This document shows positions 186 through 44,986 of a stretch of DNA of 64,000 bases, piece after piece (the first letter of the stretch is position 1; every line of letters starts with the position of its first letter). Position numbers and translations under genes: made by a program. A model generated the notes under the pieces. It saw only the letters and a list, made by a program, of their open reading frames with translations. It searched no databases and had not been told where the DNA came from. This DNA comes from Leucosporidium creatinivorum (Eukaryota > Basidiomycota > Microbotryomycetes > Leucosporidiales > Leucosporidiaceae): positions 372,260 to 436,259 of the forward strand of contig BCKL01000024.1 in assembly GCA_001600635.1 (NCBI GenBank), read 5' to 3'.

Positions 186-422
186 GTGAGTCGAGGGTTA
201 CTGGGCGGTGGCAGCGACGGGCGAGGATGTATAAAAAGCTGCTGTTACTGGTCCCGGGACGAGGGTCAGCGTGTAGCAGCTGGACGGCGTCCGTGTCGAG
301 CGAGACTGCTCAGTTGTGGGGGCTGGCGAGCTGCAGAGAGAACGGTAGCGAGGTGAAGAAAAGAAGCAGTCTCCACTGACGTGTGAGAGTCGCATGCTGA
401 TCCTCGTCGTACCCGTCCGCAG
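186..422 (+). other. Predicted 5' leader intron of A1
   Basis: A GTGAGT donor after GATTGAAG and a gtccgcag acceptor frame about 237 bases upstream of the A1 start codon. The same donor context and a c-g-c-a-g acceptor lie at matching positions before A2, A3, A4 (32114-32355) and A5, so a spliced leader exon looks like an ancestral feature of A-type genes. No reading frame of the leader exon stays open in all copies, so I take it as 5' untranslated. Confidence 0.5.
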
Positions 423-480
423 AACTGTTCCCCTCCCCCTCCTTCGCCGACTCTCACTTCGACCTGCTCGCCCCCTCGAC

Positions 481-1612
481 ATGGCAGTCATCCAGGATCT
501 ACCGCCCGAGCTGCTGAGGAGGATTCTCGAGCTCCTTGCAGAGGCTCAACACGCCAGCGGCGAGCTTTGTAGGACCTCCTTGGTCGCCCGAGCGTGGCGA
601 GAACCCTCGCGCCAGCTCCGTCTTTACACTACGGATTTCGGCTACCTAGTCCAGAAAGGATCCTGGTATCGTGTTCGCCATGCAGAAGCCTGCGCCATCC
701 GACAAGTGGCATTCTTTCGGTGTAACGGGGAGGAGCTGCTCGAATTGCTGGAGGAGTTCCGCCCGAGCGTGCAGACGTTGGCAGTGGCGAGCGCTTACCC
801 CGACTGGCGCGTAGATTTCAGCAGGATGAACGCCGAGGTCCTCGCCCGTACGCTCGTGCCTTCTCAGGTTGATACCGCGTTGCTCACCAATCCCCACTTC
901 TTCCCAGGCGTACACTGCCTCGAGCTTTGGGGAGATGTCGATGGACAGCCGGACGTCACGAGCAACAGCATGCTCGAACTCCACGCCTTGGGCTTACACT
1001 CGAACTGCCCACCGTCCCCGCTCTTCCTCGACGCCCTTCTCAGCGCGACGCCCTTCTTGACCCGACTCCAGCTATGGGCAAGCGGCGGGGAGCCTTTCTT
1101 TCCAGCACACTTCAATTCAGCCCTGAGCCCCATTGCTCACCAACTCGTTCACCTCACACTTTGCGTCTCGTCGACGCCAATCGCACGGACTCGTTCGACG
1201 TCGTTGACTTTGTCGCCTCCTGCACTTCTCTTCGCTCCTTGAAGCTTTATGAAACTGTTTTCTCGGTCAGGAAGTGCCTTTTCGCGGCTCTGTGTGGCCC
1301 TCTCTTGCTTTTGGAGACCGACTTGGGGACAGTATGGAGTGAAGATGGCAAGGGCATCGCCGAGCTGATAACTATCCTCGAGCTTCCTCCGATGGCGACA
1401 CTTCGTCGCTGGAGGATCAATGGGCCAGCCAGTTCGCGGGATGTGCTGGACGAGGAAGAGCGGAGCCAGTGGGCAGCAGCTTGCCAAGCTCGAGGAGTCG
1501 AGCCTCGCGACGAGCGCCGATTCTTTACCGGTGAGCTTTCTGAGCTTCTCTCTGAGCCCGTTCAGACCATCACTGACGTCTTCTCTCTCCTCCAGACTAC
1601 CCCGCCGATTAA
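481..1612 (+). pseudogene. F-box protein A1, frameshifted
   Basis: F-box protein gene of the local family. The N-terminus has the F-box core LPPELLRRILELL followed by SLVARAWREPS, then leucine-rich stretches and the family tail ARGVEPRDERRFFTD. Exons are 481-847, 908-1530 and 1596-1612, matching the intact paralogues A2 and A3. Exon 2 is 623 bases where a multiple of three is expected, and the frame shifts near 1160, between HQLVHLTL and RLVDANRTDSFDVV. This is best explained by one missing base. Without it, the protein would end in FTDYPAD like its sisters. F-box proteins normally recruit substrates to SCF ubiquitin ligases through the C-terminal repeats; that role is family knowledge, and the substrate is unknown. 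It could still be a sequencing error. Confidence 0.75.
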
Positions 1613-2487
1613 CTGGGACGACGAGTCGATGGGTCAGCTCCATCGCCGCCTCTCCGCCGAGCCGCGCTGACCTCTCGCATCGCAGGGAGGTCGACGTACT
1701 TGCTGTCGAGACGATGTGAGGAGATGCACTTGATACGATGTTCTTGATGAACTTGTTTTGCTTTCCGTCAGCGCCGAGGTCGAGCGAGTTGAGAGCGAGA
1801 CAGGAGAAGGCTGCTCGGCGCTGGCAAAGGGAGCTTTTGGAGTGCTGCAGACAGCTAGAGCCGCCTCGCAGAGAAACAACAAGGATTTTAGTTGAGCTTG
1901 CCTCAGGTGAGAGCCGTGCATCGACCTACAACTCGACCACCCTCTCGCGCTCTCCCCTCCAGGTCGAGAGCGAACTTGGAGCGAGCGCCTCTTTCCCTCC
2001 CGCTTCTCGCTCGACTTTGCTTCTCTCGCCCGCTCGACAGCTCTCGACTTCGGATAGGAAGCTCTACTGCAACAAGACTACCACTCGACTGCTTCCTCCC
2101 TCGCCCGCTCTGCAACGAGGACTCGCTCAGCTCGACAGCTCGAAACGGACGGACGCTCTGCTCTGAGACGAGGAAAGCTGGTTCGCTGCTCCTGCTGGGT
2201 GTTCTAATTAGCTCGAACAAGGTTAGTTCGTCTTCTGTGTGGCTTGTCAATGAATGGAAACTGTAGGAGAGCAGTGGGCCGCCTGAGAAGAAAGCCGAGG
2301 GCAAGCGAGAAGGCCTGAGCGTCTGTTGTGATGGATAGAGGACCTCGACTGAGCAGGATGCGGAGGCGACTAAGTTCGAGAGACTTTGAAGCCTTGCAGG
2401 ACTGTAGCTGACTCTTTCCGTCGTGGCTCCACAGCTGAAGCTCCGCACCCTTTCCGCCCACCCCGTCACTCACTCCCCCTCCTCGAC

Positions 2488-4018: not shown

Positions 4019-5673
4019 CTAAATGCCCTTCCATCGCTTAAGGCTTTCGTATACGGTCATCGAGATACCGTTGGCAGGGATCTGCGAGGAGCGAGGGCGA
4101 GGTGATCACCGAGTGTACGGGAAGAGTGGGAGAAGAGAGATCAGCTCGTGCTCGGCGGGCGCCTCCGCCATCCCTCTCCGCCCTCACAGCGAAAGCACAA
4201 CTCACCGCGTAAGCCACCCTAATCCCCAACCCCCTCCCAAACGCCCTCACCCCACCCTGCCTCCACAAGTCCTTCACAATCCCACCAACTCCCTCGCCCT
4301 TCCCCCCACTAGTCTGCCACCTCGACTGCACCAACTCAATCGGGTTGGTCACGCACGCGGCGAGCGAACATGCCGTCACGCTGCAGAGCGTGTACCGCGC
4401 GGTCGTGGGGAGCGTCCAGGAAGCAGAAGGGGAGGGAGTAGGGGGCGTGGGAGGAGGGCCGTAGGCGTCGTAGCCTGGGATGAAGTGGGTTTTGAAGGAT
4501 TCGTAGAGGGACCAGTAGAGAGAGATGTAGGGTCTGTGGTGGAGGAGGGGGCCGAAGGTCAGCGATCTCGTCCTCGTTCGTCGAGTCGGCGGCTCGGCGC
4601 TCGCCTCGGCTGCCTTCTCAGCCGCATCCTTCTCATTGCCTCCCTTCTCGACTCCGAACAAAGCTTGACCACTCACACGAATACCAAATTCGACAACCAA
4701 TACCCCCTCCAGACGCCCTTATAGCCCTCCTCCCGCCAAATCTTCTTGAGCAGCTTCGTCGCCGAGGTGCCTTCGTTGCCCTTCTGCAGACGTGCTTTCA
4801 TGACGTCCATCGGGGTCCAGATGGCTCCAGAGAGGACTGCGATACGAGTTGGTGATATTGATGGTGAGGGGATGAGCGTGGGTGAGGATGGAGTGGAGGC
4901 GAGGGGGAAGGCCGGGTTCGGCGAAAGGAGGGGTGAAGAAAGTGGTGAAGGCAGCGGCGCGATAGGTCAAGGGAAGCGGGATCGAGCAGGTGGGGAGAGG
5001 GAGGAGGGAGGGATCAGGTGGATGGCGAAGGAGGCGAGATATAAACAAGGTCAGCGAGCGAACCTCTCTCCCCTCCCCACCATCGCCGAGCACTCACACT
5101 CAGCCGTCATGCCCGCCATGACAAACACCGGCAACTGTTGCACCAACGTCGGTTTACTATCCTTCGGCAGGAAGCGTTCGCCGAAATATCGTTTTGATGC
5201 TGTTTGCCAACCATCACGGGTCAGCCTGCGAAGGAGAGCCAAAGGGAGAGAGCGAGGGGAACGGACCTTCATAGCTCGTTAGGTAGACTGAGAGAGCAGG
5301 GACCGAGAAGCCGATCGCTACTGGTAAACCTGCGGACGTCGGCGTTAGCTCGATGCTCCTCTGCAGCTCTCCCGGAGCAAGAGAGAGGAACTCACCAGCG
5401 TAAAGGTGCTGCAGCCTAGGTTTCGGGATCAACTGCTTCAGTGGCGGCACGAGAGCACCAGGGTAGGTTTGTATCCGAATCCTGACGGTATCCACTGTTC
5501 AGCCGCCCATCAGCTTGATCCCAGGCCGGAGAAGAGGAGGAGAAGCGGGACGAACGAGGGTGGGTGCATAACCGTGCAGAGACGGCCGAGGCGGAGGAGG
5601 CTACGAGGGTGAAGGGGTCGACGTAGACTGTTGCTGTTGCGGGGCGGGCTTCGAGCTCCAGGTCGCCTGACAT
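4019..5673 (-). CDS. Mitochondrial carrier family (SLC25) protein
   Basis: Membrane transporter of the mitochondrial inner membrane; substrate not assignable from sequence alone. Splicing seven exons (5673-5556, 5494-5396, 5329-5267, 5199-5098, 4836-4677, 4533-4206, 4081-4019) gives 310 residues, the usual size for the family. All three signature P-x-[D/E] loops appear: HPLDTVRIRIQ (across the exon 1/2 junction), TPMDVMKARLQ and NPIELVQSRWQ. The second repeat is followed by the matrix motif EEGYKGVWRGYWLSN. The protein ends with IPANGISMTVYESLKRW, typical of carrier C-termini. The start is the ATG giving MSGDLELEARP. It lies 345 bases downstream of the HD1 stop codon, transcribed in the same direction as HD1. 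The first exon uses a GTTCGT donor and the third GTCCGT, both slightly off consensus. Nothing looks broken. Confidence 0.9.
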
Positions 5674-6018
5674 GGCGGAGAGGAGGAGGGAGCGGAAAGG
5701 GGAGGCGAGAGAAGAGAAGGGCGACCGGCGCCTGAGGGTGAGAGAAGCGGCGGAAGAGCTACAGAGAGCTTCTAGTGCAATTTTCGAGTGTTGAAGCGTA
5801 AGACGAATGAATAGGACGGAGCAGAGATGAACAGCCGAGCTCGCCGAAAGTGTTGTTGCTTTCCCTCCTCCGAGAATCGCCTTTCTCACTCTCGCTATTC
5901 GCTCTCGAGGTACAGCTCAGCACGAACAAGTCCAACAGATCACAATGCACATCAACTATCTACCTCCGACCACCAAATGTCCATCTAAGCTACAACTCCC
6001 TGCTCCCGCCCGCTCCAT

Positions 6019-7317
6019 CTACGAGAACGAAACCTGACCGGCCAGCGGTAGGGCATAAGGATAGTCGGCGAGTGTCGAGAAGTAGGGGTTGGGTTCTTGC
6101 GCCTGTGCCGAGGAGGGGTAGACGAAGCCCGAGTGCTCGGCGGGGGAGGGGAGCTCGAAAGCCATCGGCGAGGCGGAGTAGAAGGAGGATGCGGAGGTCG
6201 AAGAGGAGTCGATAGAGAAGTGGGAGAGGCCGGAGAAGTTGCGCGAGGCGGAGGAGGAGTCGGAGACGTTACGAGGTGCGGGTGGGAGGGCGAGGGGCAG
6301 GCCGAAGGGGAGAGGGAGAGGGTCGTCGACCTGGAGGTCCTCGCTGTTGTCCTCCACCTTGGGCGCCACGACGCCGAGGTTCATCGCCGGTTTCCTCTCC
6401 TTCCTCCCCTTCAACACCTTTCCCTTCCTCTCAATCTCCCCCGCCGACATCACCACCTCGGCGATCCCCCTCCCCACACTATTCTTCTCCTCATCCCTAA
6501 ACCACTCCCTAACCTTCTGCACCTCCCTCCTCGCCTCCTCCGACACCTGCCAACTCGTCAACGGGGAATCGACCTCCCGGATAAACCGCTCCATCCCTTC
6601 CTTCTTCTCCCCGCCGAAGCGTTTGTAGAGGTCGCCCCAGCCGGATCGGCGACGGGTGTTGATGAACCAGGTGGCGCATTGGGCTTCGGATTGGGAGGGG
6701 ACGAGAGTGTGGAGGGACTTCTTGTCGGCGGTGGTGAGGTAGGGGAAGGAGAAGTGGTCGAGGAACCAGCGGCGGTAGGGCGCGAGGACGTCCTCGTTCG
6801 GCGCGGAGTGGGAATTGCTCCGAGGTTGGGAAGAGAAGGACGGATACTGTCGAATATCCTTGTTGAATGCAAAGCTACAGCTCCCCTGCTGTGCTAAGTA
6901 GTCCTGCACGTCTCCCGTAATCTTGTCCGTGATCTTGGCGACCGCGCTGTCCCTCTCCGCCATCCGTGCAACTATGGTGTGCACTCTACTGGCAACAAGA
7001 TGGCACAGTTGAATTGTCTCGTCCGAAAGAAGGCCGCGCTCCGCCGCCTCGACGACCTGCGGTAGCTTTACCTCCCACTGACGAGCGAACCGCTCAAGGT
7101 CGGCGCTGTTTCCCATCGCCTGCAGGAATGCGCTCTGGCTGGCAAGCAGGTCGGCGCATGTTGCTTGATCCATGCTGGTAGTGATTGCTGGCAAGTCCTC
7201 GTGCAGTGGGGGAGCGTAAAGGCGTTTGCGTGGCGCTGGGCGGGCTGAGTGGCTGAGTGAGGGCGACGAGGAGGGCTGAGTTCTTGTTCGAGCATGGGAG
7301 GAGGGGAACCGAGGCAT
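6019..7317 (-). CDS. HD1: HD1-class (TALE) mating-type homeodomain protein
   Basis: One subunit of the heterodimeric homeodomain regulator that controls post-mating development in basidiomycetes. The frame is uninterrupted for 432 residues from MPRFPSSHARTR. The homeodomain lies at about residues 175-228 (DVLAPYRRWFLDHFSFPY ... ATWFINTRRRSGW) and keeps the DNA-contact residues W, F, N and R of helix 3. The longer helix 1-2 spacing is that of the TALE/HD1 class. Residues 50-145 are helix-prone and should form the variable dimerisation region. Basic stretches after the homeodomain (YKRFGGEKK, KGRKERK) could be nuclear localisation signals. The last 130 residues are Ser/Pro-rich. The open frame continues 69 codons upstream, but the chosen ATG is the first one giving a typical HD1 N-terminus, 219 bases from HD2. 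The divergent partner makes the assignment strong. Confidence 0.92.
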   Translation of the reverse strand: MPRFPSSHARTRTQPSSSPSLSHSARPAPRKRLYAPPLHEDLPAITTSMDQATCADLLASQSAFLQAMGNSADLERFARQWEVKLPQVVEAAERGLLSDETIQLCHLVASRVHTIVARMAERDSAVAKITDKITGDVQDYLAQQGSCSFAFNKDIRQYPSFSSQPRSNSHSAPNEDVLAPYRRWFLDHFSFPYLTTADKKSLHTLVPSQSEAQCATWFINTRRRSGWGDLYKRFGGEKKEGMERFIREVDSPLTSWQVSEEARREVQKVREWFRDEEKNSVGRGIAEVVMSAGEIERKGKVLKGRKERKPAMNLGVVAPKVEDNSEDLQVDDPLPLPFGLPLALPPAPRNVSDSSSASRNFSGLSHFSIDSSSTSASSFYSASPMAFELPSPAEHSGFVYPSSAQAQEPNPYFSTLADYPYALPLAGQVSFS

Positions 7318-7536
7318 TGTAGCTGAGTAGCTGCTGATGTAGGTGGTAGAAAGGGAAGCTGTAGCCGAATCGAATCGAAAGGCGAAGCGAGAACAATGAA
7401 GTCGAAGGGCGAGGAGGACAAAGGCAGAGGCTCGAGCGCCGAGGGTCGAGCTCAACTTTTTGCCAAGTCGGGAGGACATCCCCTTCAACTCGAACTCGCT
7501 CATCACACTTCGACCTTCTACCACATCTTCTTCACC
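7318..7536. promoter_or_regulatory. Shared divergent promoter of HD1 and HD2
   Basis: The 219 bases between the two start codons must contain both promoters. Such compact divergent arrangement is the classical layout of basidiomycete HD loci. I could not identify a specific operator; the heterodimer is known in other species to bind upstream of HD target genes, and a site here would be inference. Confidence 0.7.
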
Positions 7537-8997
7537 ATGGATACGGCACGAATCGCAGCAGACTCTAGGCGAATGCTACAGCTTTTTGGCTCGCTGCCAC
7601 CTTCTCCTCCAGGCAAACCCCTTCCTCCGCCTCCCCGCCTACAACTCCAAACACATGACATACGGCCAGACCTCGCAGGCCTAGGGTGCAGCGAGTCGAC
7701 CATGCAGAGTTTGATACAGATTTTCGACAACGCTCAAGGCCGACTACAGCGGTCGTGCAGGGAGAGCCACGAGGCGACGCTTCGCAAACTTGCGCACGTC
7801 GGCACCGAGGAGGAGGTGTACCCAGCGTATCAGAACGCTTTGGAGGTCAGGTATGGACGCCTTTACCTAGAACAGCTGCTGGGCACTCGGGCCCAGCTAG
7901 TTGAAGAAGTGAGGCGGGCGCAAGAACGAGTAGCAGCGGCGGTCGAAGCGGACAGCGGGCGAGGCAACTTCTCGGGCGAGGTGGTGGAGCTACTGGAGCG
8001 CGCTTTCGCACAGCAGACGACGCTGAATCGAGCCGAGCGGCGGTCACTAGCAGAGGCGACAGGCCTTGAGGAGAAGCAAGTCGGCACCTGGGTGAGCCTT
8101 TGTCTTCGCGCTCAGTCCTCGTTCGCATTTAGCTAACCCTGCTTTGCAACACAACAGTTCGCCAACCAACGTCAACGACGCCTCCGACCTTCCCAACGCG
8201 AGCGGACGGCGCCTTACGACCTCACCAGCCGACCGAGGGGGCGCCGAGACTTCTCGGGCAGCTCGGCTTCGTCCATGTCCTCTCTCAACTCGGCTTTGTC
8301 GGACGTCTCTACCGCTCCTTCGTCGGTGGAAAGTTGGATCAGCTCCTCCGCATCGTCGACCATCTCTTACGACTCGGAAACCCTCCCCTCCTCCACTCGC
8401 GAGGCGTCGCCCCTTCCTTTCGGCTCGCTCCCCTCTTTCGACGAACATACCTACGCTCCACCTCCTGCACCGCACCACCAGTACATCAAACAAGAGCAAG
8501 GCTACCGTGTCGCCTCCGCCTGCGGTCCTCCCCCTTCCTGGACACCCCCAATCCCCTCCGTCTCGACCACCCTCCCCACTCCCTCTCCCTCGCGCTCCTC
8601 CTTTCCCCGTTCATCACTCCCCGCCGCTTCCTCCTCAATTCACCCTTTCTTCGCCTCTCCCACCACCACCACCACCACCAACAACAGCAGCAACAACTTC
8701 TCCTTCGACTCCCCCGTCGCTCCTCCCTCGCCCACAACCGCCAACCTCCTCTCCACCGCGCCCTTCCTCCAAGGCTTCGACTTTGAGCAAGATCCCCAAG
8801 ACGGGGCGTTCTGGCAGCAGTTCCTGCAGGGAGGGTTTGGCGCTGAGCTCGGGCTGGGAGGAGGGGCCGGAGTGAGCTTCGGCGGAGAGGGAGCGCAGGG
8901 AGGGGATGGACAGATGAGCTTGATGTTGCCTATGCCGACGCCGATGGAGGAGGAGGGTCAGTTTGGGATGGATTGGGGAGGGTTGGGGCAGCAGTAG
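7537..8997 (+). CDS. HD2: HD2-class mating-type homeodomain protein
   Basis: Partner of HD1 in the mating-type heterodimer, acting in the nucleus. Exons 7537-8091 and 8158-8997 give 464 residues from MDTARIAADSRR. The single intron (GTGAGC...acaacag) splits the homeodomain just between W and F of helix 3 (QVGTW / FANQRQRR). The homeodomain spans about residues 144-195 (FSGEVVELLERAFAQQTTLN ... WFANQRQRR) with W, F, N and R in place and typical 60-residue spacing, so it is the HD2 class. Residues 60-140 are helical and charged and form the likely specificity and dimerisation region. The C-terminal half is Ser/Pro/Gly-rich with a short Thr/Asn tract encoded by a CAC/CAG-like microsatellite near 8660-8700, resembling an activation region. 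It is transcribed away from HD1. No disabling change is seen. Confidence 0.93.
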
Positions 8998-9364: not shown

Positions 9365-11345
9365 TCGCTCGACCTCGACGCTGACTGGGAGCAAAGCAGG
9401 TTCATCAACATCCTATTTATCCAGCGTATCCCCTCTCATCGTCTCGACAGCAAGCACGTCGACCTCCCTGCGAAGTGAGGGAAGGTCAGCGAGGCTCGGC
9501 GAAAAGGAGAGAACGTCCCGAAGGAGCTCACCTACCATCTCAAGATCCCAGCTACTCGGTAGGGTAATCTGAGAGAGAGCGAAGAGGTGAGTTGAGATCC
9601 GAACAAGCTTGGGGTTGAAGACACTCACCGCCGAAAAATCGACGGTCATCGCGAGGCTCGACTCCTCGAGCTCGGCAAGCTTCTTCCCAAACGCTCAAGC
9701 AGAAATTCACAGGCGGACGACCGAAGACACGGGGCTGTGTGAGTCGCCAGCGCCTCAGGTCGGCCAACGCCGGAAGCTGCAAGACCGCGATGAGCTCGGC
9801 CTCGCGGAAGTCGTCTTCGTGAAGCACCTCGGTTGCCAAGACATCAAGGTGGGCTTTCAAGCGTTTGAGGAGCTCCAAGACGAAGTGCGGACGCATCCAA
9901 CTCAGCTCCAGCATCTTAAGAGAGGTGCACGCTGTCAGAAAGTCGGCGACGTTGAAGGACTCCCTGGGAATCCCAGGCCAATCTTGATCGCTAAGGCCAG
10001 CGATCTTGATGTGACGCAGTCGAGGAGCAACAGAGGCCAAAGGCGAGTCGTATTCCGCTGGGCAGTTCGGATTGCGAGCGGTGAATTGAAGCTCGAGTCG
10101 GGTCAAGGAAGGCGCCGCCTGAAAGAGAGAAGCGAGGAGACCCGGGGAGGGCGGGAAGTTGTCGTCCAGACGAACACTCTTGAGCTGGAGCGTGGTGTTG
10201 TGAGGAAGCTTAGGCGACCCACAGCAAGGTCCGACGATCTCGAGCGATCTGAGGCCTACGCCGAGTTTCGACGTCAGCTTCCCGCTGAGAGAGGAAGGCG
10301 TGGTACGCACCCATGAGGATTCCCCGAGGCAGGCGGCCGATATTGAGCGGATACGGCCAAGCGCAGCGTAAACTTTCGACCTGCACCCGTTTTTGATTGA
10401 GCAGCTCGAGCATCTCCATAGCACTTCCAGGGAGGAGATAGGCCCGACGAAGGGTTCGACCAGAGATCTTGAGAGTCAGGCGACGCAGATCGAATCGCGG
10501 GGGGAGGGTGATGTACATGTTGGTGACCATGAGCTCTTGCGAGGGGGATGTCCACGCTTGGGCAACGAGCGAGGCGTTCTGTAGGTCGTGGGTGGAGCGA
10601 TTCTCCTCCTCACAGAGGAGCTCGAGGATCCTTCTGAGCAGCTCGGCAGGTAGATCTTGGATGACGGCCATGTCGAGGGAGCGGGTGAGCGATTCGAGGG
10701 AGAGTCGGCGAAGGAGGGGAGAGGGAAGAGCTCTGCGGGAGAGGACGATGAGGTCAGCGTTCGAGTCTCACGAGTCGGTGTACAATGCTGCCTTTCTGCA
10801 AGCGCAGCCCTCCCCCGCTGCACGTTGAAAGTCCCAGAGACTGAGCAACATCGCTCAACATGGACCTACCTCGCCAGCTGCTGCTCTCCGCTACCAATCC
10901 CAGAAGCAGCAGCAGCTACCAATCCCAGAAGCAGCAGCAGCAGGCTGTTCTACATCCCATCCCCTCGCTCCCACCGCCCAGCAACCCTCGACTCACCTTT
11001 GACCTTCAGCAAACGCGCGTCCCCGTCTCTCAGCAGATTCGCAGCAAAGCGTCCTCTCGAGCTCGCGTTGAGGTGTAGTAGTCGAGTGGGCGTGTAGCAG
11101 TCGAGTAGAGCTTCCTCCTGTAGCTTTCCGGGCGAGTAGCGACGGCGAAGGCGAGAAGGCGAGTTGAGACGAGCGAACTGGGAGAGGGCAAGGGAGGTGA
11201 GCGGGGAGGCCGAGGCAGGGGAGCTGGAGAGGGGGTGTCGGTGAGCTGGTGCGGGAGCGGAGAAATGTAGCTGTGTGTTAACTCCGCTTCTGATTCCTCA
11301 GCGAACCGCTCTCGTCAAGCTCCCCTTCCGCCGAGGTCGACTCCG
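9365..11345 (-). repeat. F-box module 2 (A2 only), inverted relative to module 1
   Basis: A-type half of the F-box duplication. Its left end, about 9365-9480, matches the start of the A-B spacer seen at 33.4 kb and 45.8 kb and then stops, so the B half is missing. Its right end at about 11345 carries the block reading gctgctcggcgaagtcgacc-like on the coding strand, which also begins modules 3, 4 and 5. With module 1 it forms inverted repeats around the HD locus and carrier gene. Confidence 0.7.
9552..10671 (-). CDS. F-box protein A2, intact
   Basis: F-box protein of 334 residues, encoded by exons 10671-10311, 10255-9629 and 9568-9552. The F-box is at residues 1-45 (MAVIQDLPAELLRRILELL ... 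NASLVAQAWTSPS). Repeated leucine-rich units follow, including GLRSLEIVGPC, SLTRLELQF, APRLRHIKIAGL and SLKMLELSWM. The conserved end is LPALADLRRWRLTQ followed by CRARGVEPRDDRRFFGDYPTE. The phase-1 junctions at both introns match paralogues A3, B4 and G1 exactly, which supports the model. F-box plus repeat proteins usually act as SCF ubiquitin-ligase adaptors; the leucine-rich reading of the C-terminus is my inference from residue spacing. It is the nearest gene downstream of HD2 and runs toward it. Confidence 0.88.
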
Positions 11346-11901: not shown

Positions 11902-13095
11902 TCAGTAGAAGTCGCCACCCTTCTTGCCTCCATGGAAGCGGCGGTGCTGTATCAGAGAGAGTGGGAGAGGTCAGCGAGGGAGCGAGAAGGAGGGCAGAGA
12001 GAACGGCGCACCTTGAAGTCATCATCCTCGTCCTTACGGAAGTCGACGACCTTGAGCACATTGCGATCCTTGGCCTCAACCTGGTTGAACTTGGCGTCGT
12101 GCTCGGTAGCGTCGTGGACCTGTTGGGAGAGGAGAAGAGTCAGCGCCGAGCAGGAGGGTAGGAGGAGAGGGCTCACGTTGAAGTTGGTCTTCTTGAACTT
12201 GTCCTCGTTGATGGCCTTGACCTCGGCGAACTGTAGTGAGGGAGAGGGAGAGGGAGAGTCGGCGGGGAGAGCGGAGGNNNNNNNNNNNNNNNNNNNNNNN
12301 NNNNNNNNNNNNNNNNNNNNNNNNNNNNNNNNNNNNNNNNNNNNNNNNNNNNNNNNNNNNNNNNNNNNNNNNNNNNNNNNNNNNNNNNNNNNNNNNNNNN
12401 NNNNNNNNNNNNNNNNNNNNNNNNNNNNNNNNNNNNNNNNNNNNNNNNNNNNNNNNNNNNNNNNNNNNNNNNNNNNNNNNNNNNNNNNNNNNNNNNNNNN
12501 NNNNNNNNNNNNNNNNNNNNNNNNNNNNNNNNNNNNNNNNNNNNNNNNNNNNNNNNNNNNNNNNNNNNNNNNNNNNNNNNNNNNNNNNNNNNNNNNNNNN
12601 NNNNNNNNNNNNNNNNNNNNNNNNNNNNNNNNNNNNNNNNNNNNNNNNNNNNNNNNNNNNNNNNNNNNNNNNNNNNNNNNNNNNNNNNNNNNNNNNNNNN
12701 NNNNNNNNNNNNNNNNNNNNNNNNNNNNNNNNNNNNNNNNNNNNNNNNNNNNNNNNNNNNNNNNNNNNNNNNNNNNNNNNNNNNNNNNNNNNNNNNNNNN
12801 NNNNNNNNNNNNNNNNNNNNNNNNNNNNNNNNNNNNNNNNNNNNNNNNNNNNNNNNNNNNNNNNNNNNNNNNNNNNNNNNNNNNNNNNNNNNNNNNNNNN
12901 NNNNNNNNNNNNNNNNNNNNNNTGATAGCTTTGACCTCGACAAACTGTTGAGAAGTAGAGCAGAAGGTCAGCGAGAACGGACAGACGGAACAGCGAGCAA
13001 CTCACCCTGATGTCCTCACCATCTCCCCAGGGAGCAGCGACGACGACGGCGGCGAGGGAGGCGACAAGGGCGAGGGTGGAAGCGCGAGCGAGCAT
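11902..13095 (-). CDS. Secreted protein with tandemly repeated exons (internal assembly gap)
   Basis: Unrecognised secreted protein. Exon 1 (13095-13006) encodes 30 residues with a clear signal peptide (MLARASTLALVASLAAVVVA, cleavage after ...AAP likely). The next exon starts at 12944 with FVEVKAI and runs into a 645-base N gap. Beyond the gap, exon 12230-12177 encodes FAEVKAINEDKFKKTNFN, exon 12119-12012 encodes VHDATEHDAKFNQVEAKDRN then VLKVVDFRKDEDDDFK, and the last exon (11946-11902) encodes HRRFHGGKKGGDFY. All introns visible are phase 0. The F-[V/A]-E-V-K-A-I exon start occurs on both sides of the gap, so at least one exon is duplicated and more copies may be hidden in it. The mature protein is very hydrophilic, Lys/Asp-rich and lacks cysteine. 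No known family is recognised. Confidence 0.7.
12278..12922. other. Assembly gap (645 N)
   Basis: Run of undetermined bases inside the secreted repeat-exon gene. The flanking exons begin with nearly the same codons, so a collapsed tandem repeat is the likely cause. Confidence 0.95.
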
Positions 13096-13828: not shown

Positions 13829-14937
13829 CTGAGAGGGGGGAAAAGTCAGCTCCCGCTCGAGACAGAGGAAAGACTTGCATCACAACTCACCAGTGAAGAA
13901 GCGCCGTTCGTCGCGAGGCTCTATCCCTCGAGCTCGGCAGGCGTGCTCCCACGATGCCCTCTCCTTCGCCAGCCCCACGCACTTCTCGCCGGTACGAAGC
14001 CTCCAGCGCTTGAGCCCCACTGCAGTAGGCAGATCGAGAATGGCAACGAGGGTTGCGACGGGATCGTCGTGCAGCGTCCAGTCGCAGTCGAGGTAGGTGT
14101 CCAGGAGAACCAGGGGTACGCGAACAGTTGTCAGAACCGCTTGAATGATATCGAGGTTGACTTGGACGAGCTCAAGCGACTTCAGAGACGTGCAGGAGGC
14201 GATAAAGGCGAGGACGTCGAACGAGGGAGGAGCCGCCGAGTAGGGGCGAGGGCGGGGCATGGTCAAGTGAAGTGGTCGAGAGGCAACAGCATCTACCGCG
14301 TTGATGAATCCCGTCGGGAAGCCTTTCAGAAACCCATTGGTGAGTTCGAGACGAGTCAAGAAAGGCGCCGCGCCGAACAGGGAGTGGAGGAAGGCCGAAG
14401 ATGGAGGAGAGTCGGCGTTGAGATGGAGGCTGATGAGCTTGAGCGTGGTGTTTGGAGGAATGGATAGTGGCTTCTGGAAGGGTCCCCTGATGGTGAGGGA
14501 CTCAACGCCTGCACGAGAAGGCGTCAGTGCTGGCGCCGGCGCTTCACGAAGTTAAGCCGTTACGCACCAGCTAGTAGCTCAGGGCTCGCAGCATACAGGT
14601 CAAAGTCAGTTGAGCGTGTCGAGACCAGTTTCAAGCTCTTCACAGTCGCCTTGTGCACAGCCAAGAGCTCTAGTACCACTTTCGCCTTTTGGGAGGACAG
14701 CTGGACTCGGCGAAGCTTGCGACGAGAGTTCAGCCGTACCCAGATTGGGAATGCCAACGACGATAGGTTGTTGACGTTCAAGTTGTAGGCAAGGAGCTCC
14801 TGCGACGGGCGTCTCCAAGCTCGAGCGACCAGCGATGAGCTTGCCAGAGAGGTCGCTAGGGGCGCTCTCCCGTCTCCCTTGATGAGCTCAATGATGTGAT
14901 AGAGCAGCTCGACCGGTAAATCCTCAATGACTGCCAT
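13818..14937 (-). CDS. F-box protein A3, intact
   Basis: F-box protein of 332 residues from exons 14937-14568, 14508-13891 and 13828-13818. The F-box reads MAVIEDLPVELLYHIIELI ... SSSLVARAWRRPS. Leucine-rich segments follow, such as GVESLTIRGPF, FLTRLELTNGF and CTSLKSLELVQVNL, and the family end is GLKRWRLRTGE then CRARGIEPRDERRFFTDLC. The summed length of exons 1 and 2 (988) is identical to that in A2, supporting both models. Its final exon ends earlier than in A2 (FTDLC instead of GDYPTE), because the downstream sequence is unrelated to the usual module. It is arranged head-to-tail with A2, separated by the secreted repeat-exon gene. A role as SCF adaptor is inferred from the F-box only. 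Confidence 0.87.
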
Positions 14938-15590
14938 GCCGAGCGAGCGAGCGAGTCGGAGAAGGGTCGGCGAGGGTGGGGAAGGGGGAGGTAACTCTGC
15001 GCGAGAGGCGGAGAGGGTCAGTATGCGAGTCTCGTGTGCTGGTGTACACTGCTGTTCTCTTCCTCCCGGTGCCGTCCCCTCTGCAGCGCCGAGTCCCAAG
15101 ACTGGGCAGCCTCAGTCGACCCGGGCGCCTTGCTCCCCAGTTGCTGCTCCCCGTTCCAAGCCCAGCAGCAGCAGCAGCCCCTCCTACATCCTGTCCTCTC
15201 ACCCTCTCAGCCCGGCCACCCTAAATTCACCTTCAATTCGCAGCAGATGCGCCAGTAGAGCGTCCTCTCGAGCTCGTGTTGAGGTGCAGTAGTCGAGTGG
15301 GCGTGTAGCAGTCGAGTAGAGCTTCCTTCTGCAGCTTTCCAGGCGAGTAGCGGCGGCGCAGATGAGAAGACGAGATCAGGCGAGTGGAGCGGGCGAGGGC
15401 AAGGGAGTGTGGAGTGAGCGGGGAGGGGGCGAGATGAGCTCCGAGAGGGGCTGAGGGTTGGATGGCAAGGGCGCAGGCCCATGTAGCAGTGTATCACTCT
15501 CAACTTTCTGTTCGCCGGGGCTCACCCAGCAGCTCTCGTCAAGCGCTTCTTGCGCCGAGGTCGACTTCGCCGAGCAGCGTTTAAGGCTGA
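13818..15590 (-). repeat. F-box module 3 (A3 only)
   Basis: Copy of the A half of the duplication including the leader exon region (about 15240-15370) and the outer block near 15580, both alignable by eye with modules 2, 4 and 5. The downstream spacer and B gene are absent. Confidence 0.65.
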
Positions 15591-29854: not shown

Positions 29855-30408
29855 GCGGCTTGGAGCTGCCTCGGCGCTTCGGCGATGAGTCGCGATGCAA
29901 CGCTGGTCGCTTCTCGCGGCCCGTTCCGCTTGTACTACGTTGTCGGGGCTAGTGGGAATGTTGTACAGGGTGTTGTAGCTTAGACTTGGCTGCTGGGGAT
30001 CCAGTAGACTCAAGGAGACTTAGCCGAGAGCTGACCTGCTGAAAGCCAGAGGACAAGTCGCCTCGACACTTTACTTACTGTATTTACTGCTGTTCGGGAA
30101 CTGCAAATGTTGGAATGTTCGATGAGATCCCGGCCTTTCCCTGATTAGGAGAGCGGGATCGAAAGCCAAAGTGGGAGCGCTGGCGGCGAGACACACGAGA
30201 GTGGGGCAGCTCGTATGGCGTCTTATGCTTCTACCACACCGTACTCGTCGCATAACACGCCGGAGCACACCTGTCTAGGCCGGCTCAGACTGCGTCCGTC
30301 AACTGCACAGTTTTGTCTGCTGCTCAACCGCCCTCAGCAAGGCCGAACTTCGAATCTTCTCGTTCGCGATAACGGGCAGCTCGTCTCGCACTCGGGACAC
30401 TCTACGCG
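29855..30408. other. Intergenic, no gene seen
   Basis: Spacer between F-box genes G1 and G2; no open frame of interest. Confidence 0.55.
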
Positions 30409-31568
30409 ATGCAGACCATCAACGACTTACACCTGAGGTACTCTACCGCATCTTGGAGCTTGGTGCCGACATCAAACCCGAACCCTCTCGCCGATTCGGC
30501 AATCATAGTGCTCCGCCTCTTCGACTACGCTACGCTGCACTCGTGGCCCCAGGCTGGACAGCACCTTCGAAGTCACTGCTCCTATCGACGACTGAGCTGG
30601 ACACCCAGCGACTGAACAACGTCGACCCTTCCACGGCGCCATACTTTGGGCGAACAATTCGACAGCTCAGGATCGCGGGGAACGACAGCAGCATATGGTC
30701 TCAACTCCACCTTCGACCTCGAGTAATCTACATGGCTGACACTATGGTCACTGAGGCGCCGTTGGCAAGCCTTTTGACGCCCTCGCTGCTACAGGGTGAG
30801 CTGTCTCGGCGGCTCGGCGATGATGGAAGCTGACGCCTGCGAAACTCAAAGAGGTGCAACGTATCAGCCTTACCGCATATGTAGCAGGGGAGCTCTCTCT
30901 ACCCTTCAACACACAACTCACGCTGAAGACCCTCGAAGTCTCCCTCATGTACGATTCCGACCCGACCTTCTTCGCCTCCCTCATCGCCGCCGCTCCCGAC
31001 CTCTGCCATCTCGTACTCGAGTTCTCACAACGAGACCACTTCCCGCATCTCTTCATTCGAGCTCTCCTCGACCTCGCTCCTCGACTGCAACTCCTTACAG
31101 CTCGCTGGGGAGACTACGCCGCATCGACCGCTTCCCCTTTTCTTTGCCAACTCGTCGCCAACGCCTCCACCCTAAAGACCCTCGCGCTCAGCCCAATCAG
31201 CATTGATGTACTACACCCAATCCTCAGCAGTCTCATCTCATCCCTCGACGTCCTCGACATCTGCGTCGCCCATCTCCCCTCGGCGCTCGACTCGAACTGC
31301 CATGTCAAGGCCGCTCCCCTCCTCTCTCTCCTCAACCTACCCGCTCTGAGGGAGCTCAAGAGGTGGAGGCTGTACGGAGAAGAGGCAAGGATCTCTTTCA
31401 ACAGCTTCGAGGACATGAAGGAGTGGAAGAACGCTTGCGAAGCGAGGGGAATCGAGGCGCGAGACAATCGGAGGTACTTCACGGGTGAGTTGTCCTCACT
31501 TTGAGTCACTTTGAGGTGGATTTCGAGGTCACGGGTGCTGATCGGGTTGCCTTCACCTCATAGACTGA
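30409..31568 (+). pseudogene. F-box protein G2, frameshifted in the F-box
   Basis: F-box paralogue with exons 30409-30795, 30852-31484 and 31564-31568. The ATG gives MQTINDL, but the continuation PEVLYRILELGADIKPEPS lies in another frame. One base appears to be missing near 30428, and exon 1 is 387 bases where paralogues have a length of 3n+1. Exons 2 and 3 are open and show FNTQLTLKTLEVSLMY, DLCHLVLEFSQRDH, LRELKRWRLYGEE and CEARGIEARDNRRYFTD. Since everything after the lesion is preserved, the lesion is recent or a base-call error. Its upstream sequence is unrelated to the A/B modules. Confidence 0.7.
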
Positions 31569-32413
31569 ACCGCTGTACGACTGAATACCTACAATAGGTG
31601 AGTTGCAACACCCGACCAAAACTCGGCGCTCGGCGCTGATGCTTCTCCCATCAGAGCTGTACCTCTTCATCTCGGATTACTCAGGTCTTCCCTCAGTGTT
31701 ATGGCGTATGTACACGTAGTCTACCAGCTATCGAAGAGGGAGCCTAGGTCCGATATCGCTGCTCGGCGAAGTCAATCTCGGCGAAAGGAGAGCGTGTCGA
31801 GAGTGTTCCTCTGAGCCGCAGCAAGTCGAAGGCTCAAAGTTAACAGGCAGCTACATGGCTCAGCTCCCTCACGAGTCCACCGACACCCCCTCTCCCAGCT
31901 CCCGATCCCCTCCCTCGCCCTCCTCCCTTGCTTTTTTGCTTCACTCGTCTCAATTCGTCTCCTCATTCCCGCCCGCTGCCCGACTGGAAAGCTACAGGAG
32001 AAAGCTCTACTCGACTCTTACACGCCCGCTCGACCGCTGCACCTCATCACGAGCTCGAGAGGACGCTTTGCTGGAAGCTGCTGAGACCTGGACGCGCGTC
32101 TGGCGGATTGAGGGTGAGTTTAGGATGGCTGGGCTGTGACAGTAGGGTTCAGGATGTAGGAGGAGCTGCTGCTACTGTTGGGACTGGGACTGGGATTGCG
32201 GAGCCGCAGCCGGGGAGGAAGAGCGCCCGCGCTGAGCGATGCTGCTCAGTCTTTGGGACTGCCAGAGAGAGGGAACAGCTGGGTCGTGGAAGAGGGCAGC
32301 AGTGCTCATCTACTTATGAAACTGCAAGGCTAACCCTCGACCTTCTCTCCCGCAGACCTCTTACCTTTCCCCTCCTTGGCCGACGCTCTCACCCACTCGC
32401 TCGCTCGCTCAAC

Positions 32414-33317
32414 ATGGCAGTCATCCAGGATCTACCGCCCGAGCTGCTCAGAAGGATCCTCGAGCTTCTCTGCGAGGGATACCGCTCCAGCGTCGACCTC
32501 CGCAATACCTCGCTCGTCGCCCCAGCATGGAGGTCTCCCTCCCAAGACCTCATGTTCTACAATGCGGATACCACCCTCACCCGTGAGCTGACGTCCGACT
32601 CGGTGCAGGCCTCAAGTCGCTCGAGATCTTCGGACCTTGCAGTGGACTGCACAGTCTCCCTCCCGACACCACGCTCGAGCTCAAGAACCTTCGTCTCAAC
32701 GCCGAGTTCCCGCCCCCCCCTGATCTCCTCTCCTCCCTTTTCGAGGCAGCGCCTGCCTTAACTCGCCTCGACATCACTCTCACCACGTGCACCCCGAGTT
32801 TCACAGCGGAGTACGATCCACCTTTGACCTCTTTGGCGCCCCAATTGCACCACTTGAAGATCGTTCGCCTCACCGCTCGAGGTGGGCCTTGGATCGGCAA
32901 CGAGTGCTTCGACGTCGCCGGCTTCCTCACGGCGTGCACCTCTCTCAAGACGCTGGAACTCCAATGGATGCGTACGCACATCATCTTGGAGCTCCTCGAA
33001 CACTTGAATGCCCGCCTCGATGTTCTGGCGACCCAGGTACTTTTCGAAGACGACTTCCGTGCTGCCGAGCTCATAGCGGCGCTCGAGCTCCCTGCGTTGG
33101 GAACCCTGAAGCGCTGGCGAGTGTGGAAGAGCAATGTCAACTCTTCTACCCTGGCACCTGCGGAGGGTGACCAGTGGGCCGAGGCTTGCCGAGCTTGAGG
33201 AATTGAGCCTCGCGACGACCGCCGCTTCTTCACCGGTGAGCTTTCTGAGCTTCTCCCTGAGCCCACTTAGACCATCGCTGACGTCTTCTCTCTCACACAG
33301 ACTACACCGCCGAGTAG
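32414..33317 (+). pseudogene. F-box protein A4, internally deleted and with stop codon
   Basis: A-type F-box copy. It starts MAVIQDLPPELLRRILELLC and continues ... NTSLVAPAWRSPSQDLM. The first exon is only 169 bases (361-382 in paralogues), and the apparent intron (32583-32608, GTGAGC...cag) is 26 bases, too short to be spliced efficiently. About 200 bases of exon 1 therefore look deleted. Exon 2 from 32609 is open and carries GLKSLEIFGPCSG, ALTRLDITLTTC and TSLKTLELQWMRTH. Then TGA at 33196-33198 replaces the CGA Arg codon of CRARGIEPRDDRRFFTD. The last exon 33301-33317 (ending DYTAE) is preserved. Confidence 0.75.
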
Positions 33318-34214
33318 TTGGAACGACGAGTCGAGAGGTGAGCTCCATCGCAGCCTTCGCCCTCTTCGCCGAGCCTCGCTGACCTTCTCTCGCTTCGCAG
33401 GGAGGTAGTCGTGCTTGCTTCGAGACGAGGAAAGGAGATGCGCTGGATACGACGATTTTGATCAACCTGCATTGCTTTCCGTCAGCGCCGAATCCGAGCA
33501 AGTTCAGAGCGAGAGAAAGGAGCAAGCCTGCTCGGCGCATGCGAAGGGAGCTTTCGGAGTGCTGCAGACAGCTAGCACCGACTCGCAGAGAGAAAACAAG
33601 ACTATTAGTCGAGCTTGCCTCAGACGAGAGCCATGCATCGACCTACAACTCGACCCCACTCTGCGCGCAGTCCCCTCCCCTCAGCTGAGGGTCGAGAGCG
33701 AACTTCGAGCCAGCGCCTCTTTCCCTCCCGCTTCTCGCTCGACTTTGCTTCTCTCGCCCCTTCGACAGCTCTCGACTCGGACAGAGAGCTTTACTACACC
33801 TCGCCTACCCTCGACTGCTTCCCCTTTGCCTGCTCTTCAAGGAGGACTCGCTCAGCTCGACAGGTCGGAGCGGACGGACGCTGTGCTCTGAGACGAGGAA
33901 AGCTGGTTCGCTGCTGCCGCTGAGAGCACTAGATAGCTCAAGAGTGTGAGTGAGGCTGCTGAGTAGTGCGCGCTGTCTAGTAGCTGTAGGAGAGTAGCTG
34001 GCTGGCTGAGAAGCGGCGCCGAGGGAGAGCGAGGAGGGCCGAGCGTCTGTTGTGATGCGAGGCAGCTTGGCGGAGCAGGAAGCGGACGAGACGATAAAGT
34101 AGACTCACTGAAGCGATGCAGAACTCTAGCTGACCATTCCCTTGTCCGCCTACAGCCGAAGCTCTTCCCCCTCCTCTGCGCCTTCCCGTCGCTCGCTCGC
34201 TTCCCCTCCTCGCC

Positions 34215-35402
34215 ATGGCCGTCATCCAAGACCTCCCTCCCGAGCTTCTGTATCGGATTCTCGAGCTCTTGGGATCACCCTGCGCCTGCATTTTTACGCC
34301 CGAGACGCTCCTCGCGCCTTCCCTCGTCGCTCGGGCGTGGACTGGATGGGCTCAGTGTTTGATGCTTATGTGCACTGAGCTCGGTGCTCCAGTGCAGGAC
34401 AATCAGCTGTTGGATCGTCTGCAGGGGAGCGAGACTAGACCTCTGATACAGGCAGTGGATTGGCGTCTTCGTCAGGCGGACGACATCGAGGCGTTCGGCC
34501 GAGTGTGCCAGCAGGTGGGAGGGATCGAGTGTCTCGGGGTCCACGGCCCGTACACTGCGGCAGAATCATGGCTGGGAATAGACGTGCTGTACCCGGTGCT
34601 CGTCAGTGAGTTCACCCCCAGTCATCCCGGCACTGGCGGACTCTGACTTTTTATCGCTCCTCGGCGCTCAGCGCTCAACGTCAAGCAGCTTGACCTCTTC
34701 ACCAGGATCAACGGCTCCCTTTCCTACCCGTTGACCCAGTCCCTTCCCCTCGAACGCCTCAAGCTATATGCCGCCTACCTGCCTCCCTCCTCGATCTTCC
34801 GACCCCTTCTTCTTGGCGCCCACAACCTCACTCGTCTCACCTTAGACTACACCCACGGCAACCAACTAGCGATAGGGCAAGATGATCGAGATGTGTGGCT
34901 TGAGCTCGCTCCCCGCCTTCACCATCTCTACCTTGCCTTCCCGCCCGAGCCCCGAAGCCTGGCGACCATCTCAGCGGGCGGCGACAATCGCTTCCTCGAC
35001 GCCTTCCTTCCCGCGTGCACCTCACTATCCTCGTTCCAGATGGACTCCTATCATTTCGAGGCCCTCTACCCCGGTCTCCACCTCCTCACCGTCCAGCTGC
35101 AAGTGCTCACAACGAGTTTCGGCCTCGATCCAAACCACGAGCGCATCCCTCGGCGCCGAATTTGGAAGCACTTCCTCCTTCCTGCTTTATCAGGGCTCAA
35201 GCGCTGGAGGACGGAGATGTACCCGCATGAACAGGGTCGTGAGCAGGAGCAGAAGGACTTTATGGAGGCGTGGACGGAGCTTTGCAAGGAGGCAGGTGTG
35301 GAGGCTCGCGGCGACGAGCGCTACTTCACTGGTGAGCTTCTCCTGCATTCTTCCAGCTCCTCCCGAGACTCAGCTGACTTCTCCTCACTCTCCGCAGACT
35401 AA
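34215..35402 (+). CDS. F-box protein B4, intact
   Basis: B-type F-box protein of 351 residues from exons 34215-34605, 34672-35331 and 35398-35402. The F-box is MAVIQDLPPELLYRILELLG, then PSLVARAWTGWAQCL. Leucine-rich units include VKQLDLFTRINGS, LERLKLYAAYLPPS, HNLTRLTLDYTHG, PRLHHLYLAFPPE and CTSLSSFQMDSYHF. The end is GLKRWRTEMYP then CKEAGVEARGDERYFTD, where the final two-base-plus-stop exon (AC TAA) completes the Asp codon. It is the only B-type copy without a lesion and so is the best candidate for the functional B gene. It follows A4 in the same orientation after the conserved spacer. Confidence 0.87.
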
Positions 35403-43843: not shown

Positions 43844-44986
43844 TCAGTCTGCGTCGAGCGAGGGGTGGTTACCTGATAGAAACGGCGGAGCTGGAAGAGT
43901 GTAAGAGAAGCGCACCCGTGAAGTACCGCTCGTCGCCGCGAGCTTCGATGCCTCGCTCCTCGCAGAGCGCGCGCCACGCCAGCACCGCACTCTCGCTCAC
44001 GAACCCGGTGCACTTCATCCTCCATCTCTTCAGCTGTGCTACGCACGGAAGCTCCAGGGCACCTTCCAGGTCGGGATCATTGTAGCTGAGACGGGTGTCG
44101 AGCAATCTTAGGTTGCTCATGAGGGGCTTGAGGCACTCGTGGAGAGTGAGGAAGGACCTCTTCTTCGTGGTTATGAAGATCAACGAGCCCTTCGTGATCT
44201 TGAGCCGCAGGGATGTAAGCGAGGTGCACGCCGACAGGAAGGTGGCCAGCTCCGAGTAGTCCAGGTGGCGGGGATACTTGAAGCTCACATGGCGAAGCTG
44301 CGGCGCCAGGTGGAGCCATACATCTCGGGAATCTCGGTATAATGCCACGTAAGGCCCTTCGAACTCTAGGCTGAGGTGTGTGAGGTGGTGGGCGGCGAAG
44401 ATGAGGGGTCGGAGGTCGTGGGGAAGCCGAGAGTGCAGGACCAGTCGTTGTAGGGAGGGCGTGGATGGGAGAGGGGAAGGCAGGTTGACTGATATCCAAT
44501 GGCTGTTCTCGAGTCGTTTTAGTCCGAGATCTGCGGAACGCGGAGGAGGGTTAGCCCTCGTTCGGCGAAGATAGCGCGGGCCCGAGCTGCTCACCCAGCA
44601 CGAGCTTGGTATGCACACGCTTCACCTCCAGCTCCAATCCGATCTCAAATCTTTGGCCGCGGAAGTCAACGCTTTCGATGCCTCTTGCCACGTCGAGCAG
44701 CGATGCGAACGTCGCCAGAGCCTCCCTCCGAAGAGAGGCCACCTCCAGGCTGCGAATCACGGGGATCGGCTGGGGGCTCTGTAACCGCTCCCTAAACTTG
44801 GGGTTGGGCATCTCCTCAATCGAGATATTGCTCCACATGAGCTCTTGGGCAGGCGTAGTCCAGGTTTGAGCGACCAGGAAGGCGGCGCGGAGGTCGGACT
44901 TGGAGGAGGCAGGGGTGCGCTCCTGCTCGAGAAGCTCGAGAGTGCGATACAGTAGCTCGGGAGGGAGGTCTTGGGATGACGGCCAT
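43844..44986 (-). pseudogene. F-box protein B5, frameshifted at codon 5
   Basis: B-type F-box copy. The start codon context equals that of B4, but ATGGCCGTCATCC is followed by an extra C, so MAVI leads into the wrong frame. The corrected reading continues LPPELLYRTLELLEQE. Exons 44986-44595 (392 bases against 391 in B4), 44530-43916 and 43848-43844 otherwise keep paralogue structure, ending CEERGIEARGDERYFTD. Leucine-rich units include IESVDFRGQRFE, SLQRLVLHSRLPHD, HLTHLSLEFEGPY and SLTSLRLKITKG. The last donor has become GTGCGC. Except for the early insertion the gene is open, so the change is recent or a sequence error. A CTG or other internal start cannot be judged. Confidence 0.72.

What the first reader, a model, noticed from the sequence alone, without database searches (positions are those of the whole stretch)
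5673..8997. HD1/HD2 mating-type locus in a probable Pucciniomycotina yeast
Two divergent homeodomain genes 219 bases apart, one TALE/HD1 (WFINTRRR) and one HD2 (WFANQRQRR, intron splitting W from F). Both keep the helix-3 contact residues and have different helical N-terminal regions expected to set allele specificity. A mitochondrial carrier gene is adjacent. The pheromone/receptor genes are not in this window, so the locus is either separate from the P/R locus or linked at a distance.
Basis: partly seen in the sequence, partly recalled or inferred. Interest (0 to 1): 0.75.

Follow-up and report, generated by a model that had tools for sequence, protein, structure and literature searches.

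The report
Yeast mating-compatibility gene pair (HD locus)
Two back-to-back homeodomain genes in a Leucosporidium-like yeast look like the classic compatibility switch of basidiomycete sex: an intact new example of a well-known kind of locus, apparently far from the pheromone-receptor locus.

Summary
Window 6019-8997 carries an intact divergent pair: HD1 (TALE homeodomain plus Mating_N, 432 aa, minus) and HD2 (typical homeodomain, 464 aa, a 66-bp intron splitting W from F, plus), 219 bp between ATGs. The genome (27.7 Mb, 63 contigs) gave one TALE match, this one. Named nearest relatives are Leucosporidium scottii and L. creatinivorum HD1/HD2 (57-68% identity), so the yeast is a Leucosporidium relative, species unnamed. 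The mating signature shows in relatives: two L. scottii HD1 alleles are 33% identical in the N-terminal region but 100% in the homeodomain; HD2 N-termini are 38-42% identical against 87-92% in the homeodomain. The partner P/R locus was found too: one A2-type STE3, a precursor with two CTIA-ending repeats, then STE20-, KAP95- and LSM-like genes, across contigs C25 and C12 (exact 73-bp overlap). HD is on C24: about 0.52 Mb or more away (0.81 Mb if further joins hold), or on another chromosome. No second strain of this species was found, so its allelic diversity and genetic linkage stay untested. Ordinary kind, well supported.

The parts
6019..7317 (-). HD1 gene, one exon, 432 aa (alternative ATG at 7173 gives 384 aa)
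   Evidence: Open frame; Homeobox_KN and Mating_N; 61% identical to L. scottii P0001 over 100% of the query
6919..7176 (-). HD1 N-terminal Mating_N region (residues 48-133), presumed dimerisation/specificity part
   Evidence: Mating_N 48-133; helices 42-67, 71-93, 99-145, block pLDDT 91-93 from residue 51 to 140; 26-41% identity in the 21 pairs of 7 HD1 proteins over residues 49-133
6634..6792 (-). HD1 TALE homeodomain region (residues 176-228)
   Evidence: Homeobox_KN 184-224; the HD1 profile matches PKNOX1, Meis1/2 and TGIF1 chains
7318..7536 (.). 219-bp region between the two ATGs, presumed shared promoter
   Evidence: Coordinates; promoter function inferred, not tested
7537..8091 (+). HD2 exon 1 (variable N-terminus and homeodomain up to W of helix 3)
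8092..8157 (+). HD2 intron, 66 bp, GT...AG with an internal CTAAC
   Evidence: the spliced product aligns without a gap here to L. creatinivorum P0010, while L. scottii P0011 reads differently at this site, as if its record were not spliced (the latter is my reading)
8158..8997 (+). HD2 exon 2 (rest of helix 3 and the C-terminal region)
4038..5673 (-). Neighbouring mitochondrial carrier gene (limits approximate); a flank, not part of the switch
   Evidence: Mito_carr E 8e-12 on 4038-4718; no match for 5416-5916; first exon and ATG at 5673 read by eye

Best explanation
This is the HD mating-type locus of a Leucosporidium-like yeast, present as one allele in a genome that looks haploid. HD1 and HD2 are transcribed apart from a shared 219-bp region. 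Products of one allele should not pair with each other; after fusion of two cells with different alleles, HD1 of one and HD2 of the other should dimerise through their variable N-terminal parts, and the two homeodomains together bind DNA and start the dikaryotic, filamentous sexual programme. Shown: gene anatomy, domains, a single TALE match, variable N-termini against near-constant homeodomains in relatives, and a P/R locus of A2 type elsewhere in the genome. Inferred: self-avoidance, heterodimer formation, target genes, and sexual competence of this strain.
For: Domains and divergent pair; one TALE match in the genome. Orthologues: L. scottii P0001, P0004, P0011 and L. creatinivorum P0002, P0010, the last two both listed with a longest contig of 298,985. 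L. scottii P0001 vs P0004: N-terminus 28/85 (33%), linker 8/36 (22%), homeodomain 53/53, next part 70/72, C-terminal part 123/134. In the homeodomain+C tree the two are sisters (100/97); in the N-terminal tree they are not together. HD2: N-terminal parts 38-42%, homeodomain 87-92%. HD1 N-terminus modelled as confident helices. Partner locus: STE3 (Pfam E 7e-83), six of six type-named matches A2, pheromone-like precursor, STE20-, KAP95- and LSM-like genes.
Against: No second strain of this species; allelic excess and dN/dS untested here. The N-terminal tree does not reject grouping of the two L. scottii alleles (AU p 0.42), so trans-specific polymorphism is suggested by distance, not by topology. 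No Pfam match for the pheromone precursor; it rests on its repeats and CAAX-like end. The HD2 N-terminus was not modelled. The HD1 fold search had 0 of 109 matches at E 0.001 or better. Nothing was tested for expression or mating.
Confidence: 0.94

Rival explanations
1. The pair is an HD locus by descent but no longer sets compatibility: the lineage is asexual or homothallic, or the HD pair acts as a constitutive regulator.
For: In homothallic Phaffia rhodozyma the HD pair acts without different mating types (passages of PMC4915694), and asexual red yeasts keep HD genes (passages of PMC3236058). No mating data exist for this strain.
Against: Both frames are intact, whereas early HD2 stops were found in asexual red-yeast strains (PMC3236058 passages). 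One receptor and one TALE gene were found, as in a heterothallic haploid. N-termini are far more divergent than the rest, unlike the even spread reported for Phaffia HD2.
Confidence: 0.05
2. Two unrelated homeodomain regulators that happen to be neighbours, with no mating role.
For: Five further Homeodomain matches exist in the genome.
Against: Mating_N on HD1; both orthologues found in L. creatinivorum and L. scottii; chance neighbourhood improbable; variable N-termini.
Confidence: 0.01
3. On the mating system: HD and P/R are on one chromosome and partly linked (pseudo-bipolar, as in Sporidiobolus salmonicolor) rather than unlinked (tetrapolar, as reported for L. scottii).
For: One chromosome with 0.5-0.8 Mb or more between the loci is not excluded by the assembly; in S. 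salmonicolor no crossover was seen over 1.2 Mb between HD1/HD2 and PAN6 (PMC2916851 section 8).
Against: L. scottii, a near relative, is called tetrapolar (passage of PMC4915694). The right ends of C12 and C6 show telomere-like repeats, which leaves only the left sides for a connection if the joins hold.
Confidence: 0.3

Closest known systems
HD locus of Leucosporidium scottii (Maia et al. 2015, Genetics; paper not held, seen only as a citation)
   Same: Orthologous HD1 and HD2 with variable N-termini; HD1 61% identical to P0001 over full length, homeodomain 45/53
   Different: Another species: homeodomain 85% and next part 88%, against 100% and 97% between two L. scottii alleles. No crossing data exist here.
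HD1/HD2 of Leucosporidium creatinivorum (P0002, P0010)
   Same: Both genes found; HD2 63% identical over 99%; intron site agrees; genome there about 28 Mb (PMC12093110 passages)
   Different: HD1 homeodomain 43/53 identical, N-terminus 27/85: another species and another allele.
HD1/HD2 of Sporobolomyces and Rhodotorula (Sporidiobolales)
   Same: HD1/HD2 with specificity in the N-terminus; P/R neighbours RibL18ae, RibL6, LSm7, STE20, KAP95 (PMC3236058 section 10 and passages)
   Different: HD1 only 28-34% identical (P0007-P0009). There RibL18ae usually flanks STE3.A1 and LSm7 flanks STE3.A2; here an A2-type STE3 sits beside eL20/RibL18ae, with the LSM gene beyond the STE20- and KAP95-like genes.
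MATa1/MATalpha2 of Saccharomyces cerevisiae
   Same: TALE plus typical homeodomain acting as a heterodimer (recalled); the HD2 profile matches MATa1 chains, the HD1 model hits MATalpha2 chains weakly (E about 1)
   Different: In yeast the two genes sit in alternative idiomorphs (recalled); here both are in one divergent pair.

Membership tests
Basidiomycete HD mating-type locus | One HD1 (TALE) and one HD2 (typical) homeodomain gene | tested here: met
Basidiomycete HD mating-type locus | Genes adjacent and divergently transcribed | tested here: met
   219 bp between ATGs
Basidiomycete HD mating-type locus | Orthologous to HD genes of a related species with a described mating system | tested here: met
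   L. scottii and L. creatinivorum matches; 'L. scottii is tetrapolar' is from a passage of PMC4915694
Basidiomycete HD mating-type locus | N-termini much more divergent between alleles than homeodomains | tested here: met
   Met for HD1 between two L. scottii alleles (33% vs 100%) and for HD1 and HD2 between species; within this species not testable, one genome
Basidiomycete HD mating-type locus | Trans-specific polymorphism in the allele tree | tested here: inconclusive
   Conspecific alleles not sisters in the N-terminal tree, 0 of 6 inner branches well supported, AU p 0.42
Basidiomycete HD mating-type locus | Different-allele HD1/HD2 heterodimerise, same-allele do not | not testable with these tools
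   Needs two-hybrid or crosses
Tetrapolar mating system | HD and P/R loci genetically unlinked | tested here: inconclusive
   Different contigs; about 0.52 Mb or more apart given the C25-C12 join, about 0.81 Mb if further joins hold
Bipolar (fused) mating-type locus | HD and P/R close together in one region | tested here: not met
   HD on C24:378278-381256 of 467,960; STE3 on C25 near 436 kb of 440,178, whose right end overlaps C12, not C24. Rests on that join; without it the bound falls to about 0.09 Mb

The most novel reading that the evidence does not exclude
The short stretch upstream of the second HD1 ATG is under unusual constraint inside an otherwise variable locus: the 48 residues before it are 31/48 identical to L. 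scottii P0001 (the first 19 without change), while the next 85 are 33%. Either HD1 has a conserved N-terminal arm outside the specificity domain, or the DNA is a conserved element of the shared promoter, for instance an autoregulatory HD1/HD2 binding site. Alongside, the A2-type STE3 beside eL20 may keep a P/R gene order from before the A1/A2 rearrangements of red yeasts.
Probability: 0.2. Interest if true: 0.4.

Novelty: new member of a known kind. Interest (0 to 1): 0.27.

Why it matters
It gives a two-locus mating-type anatomy (HD pair plus A2-type P/R locus) for a Leucosporidium relative, in the same class as red yeasts with pseudo-bipolar systems. With a chromosome-scale assembly it would help to date when HD and P/R came to share a chromosome in Microbotryomycetes. 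By itself it would surprise no specialist.

Tried and rejected
Chance or pseudogene: rejected, frames intact and domains over cut-off. Second HD pair in the genome: no second TALE match. The control genomes rang in 0 of 14, as expected of prokaryotes. Fused bipolar locus: disfavoured by contig positions. Same species as L. scottii or L. creatinivorum: rejected on homeodomain and following part. Pfam Pheromone search of the genome found nothing, and no control rang either; the precursor was seen by eye in a contig-end ORF, and a search with it gave one place. Several Microbotryomycetes carry more than one pheromone copy (PMC12510652 passages); the contig break may hide copies. C60 against the left end of C24: shared words with shifted offsets, no clean join, left out of the argument. 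Fold search of the HD1 model: 0 of 109 matches at E 0.001 or better; the top two are TALE homeodomains. Protein searches scored a capped 7990 candidates for HD1 and HD2, so further relatives may exist. Exact species: not reached; I knew of no fungal nucleotide collection among the tools. Adjacency of the carrier in relatives: not tested.

Papers: PMC2916851 passages and section 8; PMC3236058 passages and section 10; PMC6730849, PMC12093110, PMC4915694, PMC10977897 and PMC12510652 passages only; all others search listings only. Maia et al. 2015 was asked for and is not held.

Full report
What is there. Window 6019-8997 holds two intact genes. HD1 (minus, 7317-6019) is a single exon of 432 codons; HD2 (plus, 7537-8091 and 8158-8997) encodes 464 residues, with a 66-bp GT-AG intron placed exactly between W and F of WFANQR. 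HD1 scores over the cut-off for Homeobox_KN and Mating_N, HD2 for Homeodomain. The HD1 profile matches eight distinct chain sequences, all TALE (PKNOX1, Meis1/2, TGIF1); the HD2 profile matches 54, all homeodomain proteins of animals apart from MATa1, as far as their names tell. The genome G000 has 27,713,604 bases in 63 contigs; the window is C24:372260-436259. It gave one TALE match and six Homeodomain matches, of which one is HD2. A carrier next door is confirmed on one piece, not on the piece with its presumed first exon.

Whose genome. Nine proteins matched HD1. Six bear names: two L. scottii (P0001, P0004), one L. creatinivorum (P0002), two Sporobolomyces johnsonii (P0007, P0008), one Rhodotorula kratochvilovae (P0009); three are unnamed (P0003, P0005, P0006). 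Two matched HD2: L. creatinivorum and L. scottii. HD1 homeodomain identity is 85% to L. scottii and 81% to L. creatinivorum, while the two L. scottii alleles are identical there, so I take this for a third species. L. creatinivorum has a genome of about 28 Mb (PMC12093110, passages).

The mating signature. Among 7 Leucosporidium-type HD1 proteins the 21 pairs are 26-41% identical over residues 49-133, whereas homeodomains are 64-100%. The informative pair is P0001 and P0004, both labelled L. scottii: 28/85 in the N-terminus, 8/36 in the linker, 53/53 in the homeodomain, 70/72 and 123/134 after it. Conspecific alleles are thus no closer in the N-terminus than alleles of different species. A tree of the homeodomain and C-terminus (9 rows) groups the two with support 100/97; a tree of the N-terminus does not, but 0 of its 6 inner branches are well supported and the AU test does not reject the grouping (p 0.42). 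HD2: 31/81 and 15-16/38 in the N-terminus, 52-55/60 in the homeodomain (three sequences, P0011 lacking the first 101 residues). The HD1 model has confident helices at 42-67, 71-93 and 99-145 and three homeodomain helices; residues 1-42, the linker 147-173 and nearly all after 298 have pLDDT under 50 (mean 62.5, pTM 0.32, 9 sequences). In red yeasts the HD1 N-terminus is described as the specificity region, with some sites under diversifying selection (PMC3236058, passages).

The other half of the system. STE3 matches lie at one place, on C25 (two exons). My five-exon model of 325 residues scores E 7e-83 for STE3. Of 36 database matches six are named by receptor type and all six say A2 (P0012, P0014, P0017, P0018, P0020, P0021); none says A1; a few others bear the general name a-factor receptor. 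Upstream lies eL20/RibL18ae (60S L20 chains, E 2e-30). A Ribosomal_L6 match is 18 kb away (C25:417474); a second, weaker one is on C11. ASF1 follows STE3. The contig ends in a 64-residue reading with two copies of EKNPAPPGSYLFCTIA, the second at the stop: the form of a farnesylated pheromone precursor (motif recalled; no Pfam match). The last 73 bases of C25 are the first 73 of C12, and C12 opens with a PBD-plus-kinase gene, the best of the PBD matches at three places in the genome, which I call STE20, then importin beta-1 (KAP95) and an LSM gene. In S. salmonicolor the RHA2 pheromone gene was amplified from STE20 and KAP95 primers (PMC3236058 passage), and STE20 lies in the P/R locus of L. 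scottii and red yeasts (PMC6730849 passage). So the C25-C12 join is supported by overlap and by synteny.

Distance between the two loci. HD is at C24:378278-381256 of 467,960; STE3 begins near C25:435650. Given the C25-C12 join, the closest layout puts C24's right end against C25's left end: about 87 + 436 = 0.52 Mb. Without that join C24's right end could meet C25's right end, about 0.09 Mb. Two further observations tighten the bound. C24's last 5,291 bases, which carry perfect 1,137-bp inverted repeats at both ends, equal the reverse complement of the first 5,291 of C6 at all 3,400 positions compared, and the right ends of C6 and C12 show TTAGGG/TTGGG telomere-like repeats. Either C24 continues into C6 and to a telomere, with the inverted-repeat segment in either orientation, or the shared segment is subtelomeric; in both cases only the left sides of HD and P/R could meet, about 378 + 436 = 0.81 Mb. 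A third possibility, a two-copy dispersed element, leaves 0.52 Mb. C58's last 82 bases equal C25's first 82, but they look like a tRNA gene by eye and have near copies on C25, so this join is weak and not used. With 32 kb per cM as in S. salmonicolor (PMC2916851) these distances would allow frequent recombination, but that figure is from another genus.

How it works. By established knowledge of HD loci (recalled, and PMC4915694 passages), HD1 and HD2 from different alleles dimerise through their N-termini and switch on the dikaryotic phase; same-allele products do not. Here only the anatomy is shown. The genome looks like that of a haploid with an A2-type receptor and one HD allele.

Loose ends. 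The first 48 residues of HD1 are 31/48 identical to P0001, the first 19 without change, although the next 85 are 33%; the other relatives' records begin at or near the second ATG, and the model gives this arm low confidence. A coding arm and a conserved promoter cannot be told apart without L. scottii DNA. In Sporidiobolales RibL18ae usually flanks STE3.A1 and LSm7 flanks STE3.A2 (PMC3236058 section 10); here the A2-type receptor sits beside RibL18ae, which differs from that rule.

Verdict. The locus is a new member of a well-known kind; interest is modest.

Noticed in passing
G000 C25:435650-440178 and C12:1-10000 (L010, L026): P/R mating locus with an A2-type STE3, a pheromone-like precursor with two CTIA repeats at the contig end, then STE20-, KAP95- and LSM-like genes; the contigs overlap by exactly 73 bases.
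   Followed up: yes
window 349-1670, 9552-10767, 13880-15111, 30279-35402, 43869-47139: Dispersed family of F-box-like genes with a shared start (DLPPELLRRILEL) and end (RGVEPRDDRRFFTG) around the HD locus: 6 start-motif and 5 end-motif matches in the window, and matches in L017 and L019. Of five pieces of such genes given to Pfam one had an F-box-like match.
   Followed up: partly
G000 C24:462670-467960 and C6:1-5291: A 5,291-bp segment bounded by perfect 1,137-bp inverted repeats stands at the ends of two contigs: a flip-flop segment, a subtelomeric element or a two-copy element.
   Followed up: partly
G000 C13:384720 (+) and C13:406751 (-): Two 461-aa open frames with a weak homeodomain match lie 22 kb apart in inverted orientation; the fetched 3,144-base stretches agree at 1,978 positions ungapped.
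   Followed up: partly
window 7174-7317: HD1 upstream arm strongly conserved with L. scottii P0001 directly before the variable region.
   Followed up: partly
G000 C25 STE3 against protein P0043: An unnamed 197-aa protein is 96% identical over 28% of the STE3 model, so a very close relative, perhaps the same species, is in public data.
   Followed up: no
window 12278-12922: A stretch that reads N inside a small secreted-protein-like gene with repeated flanks (the description is by eye).
   Followed up: no
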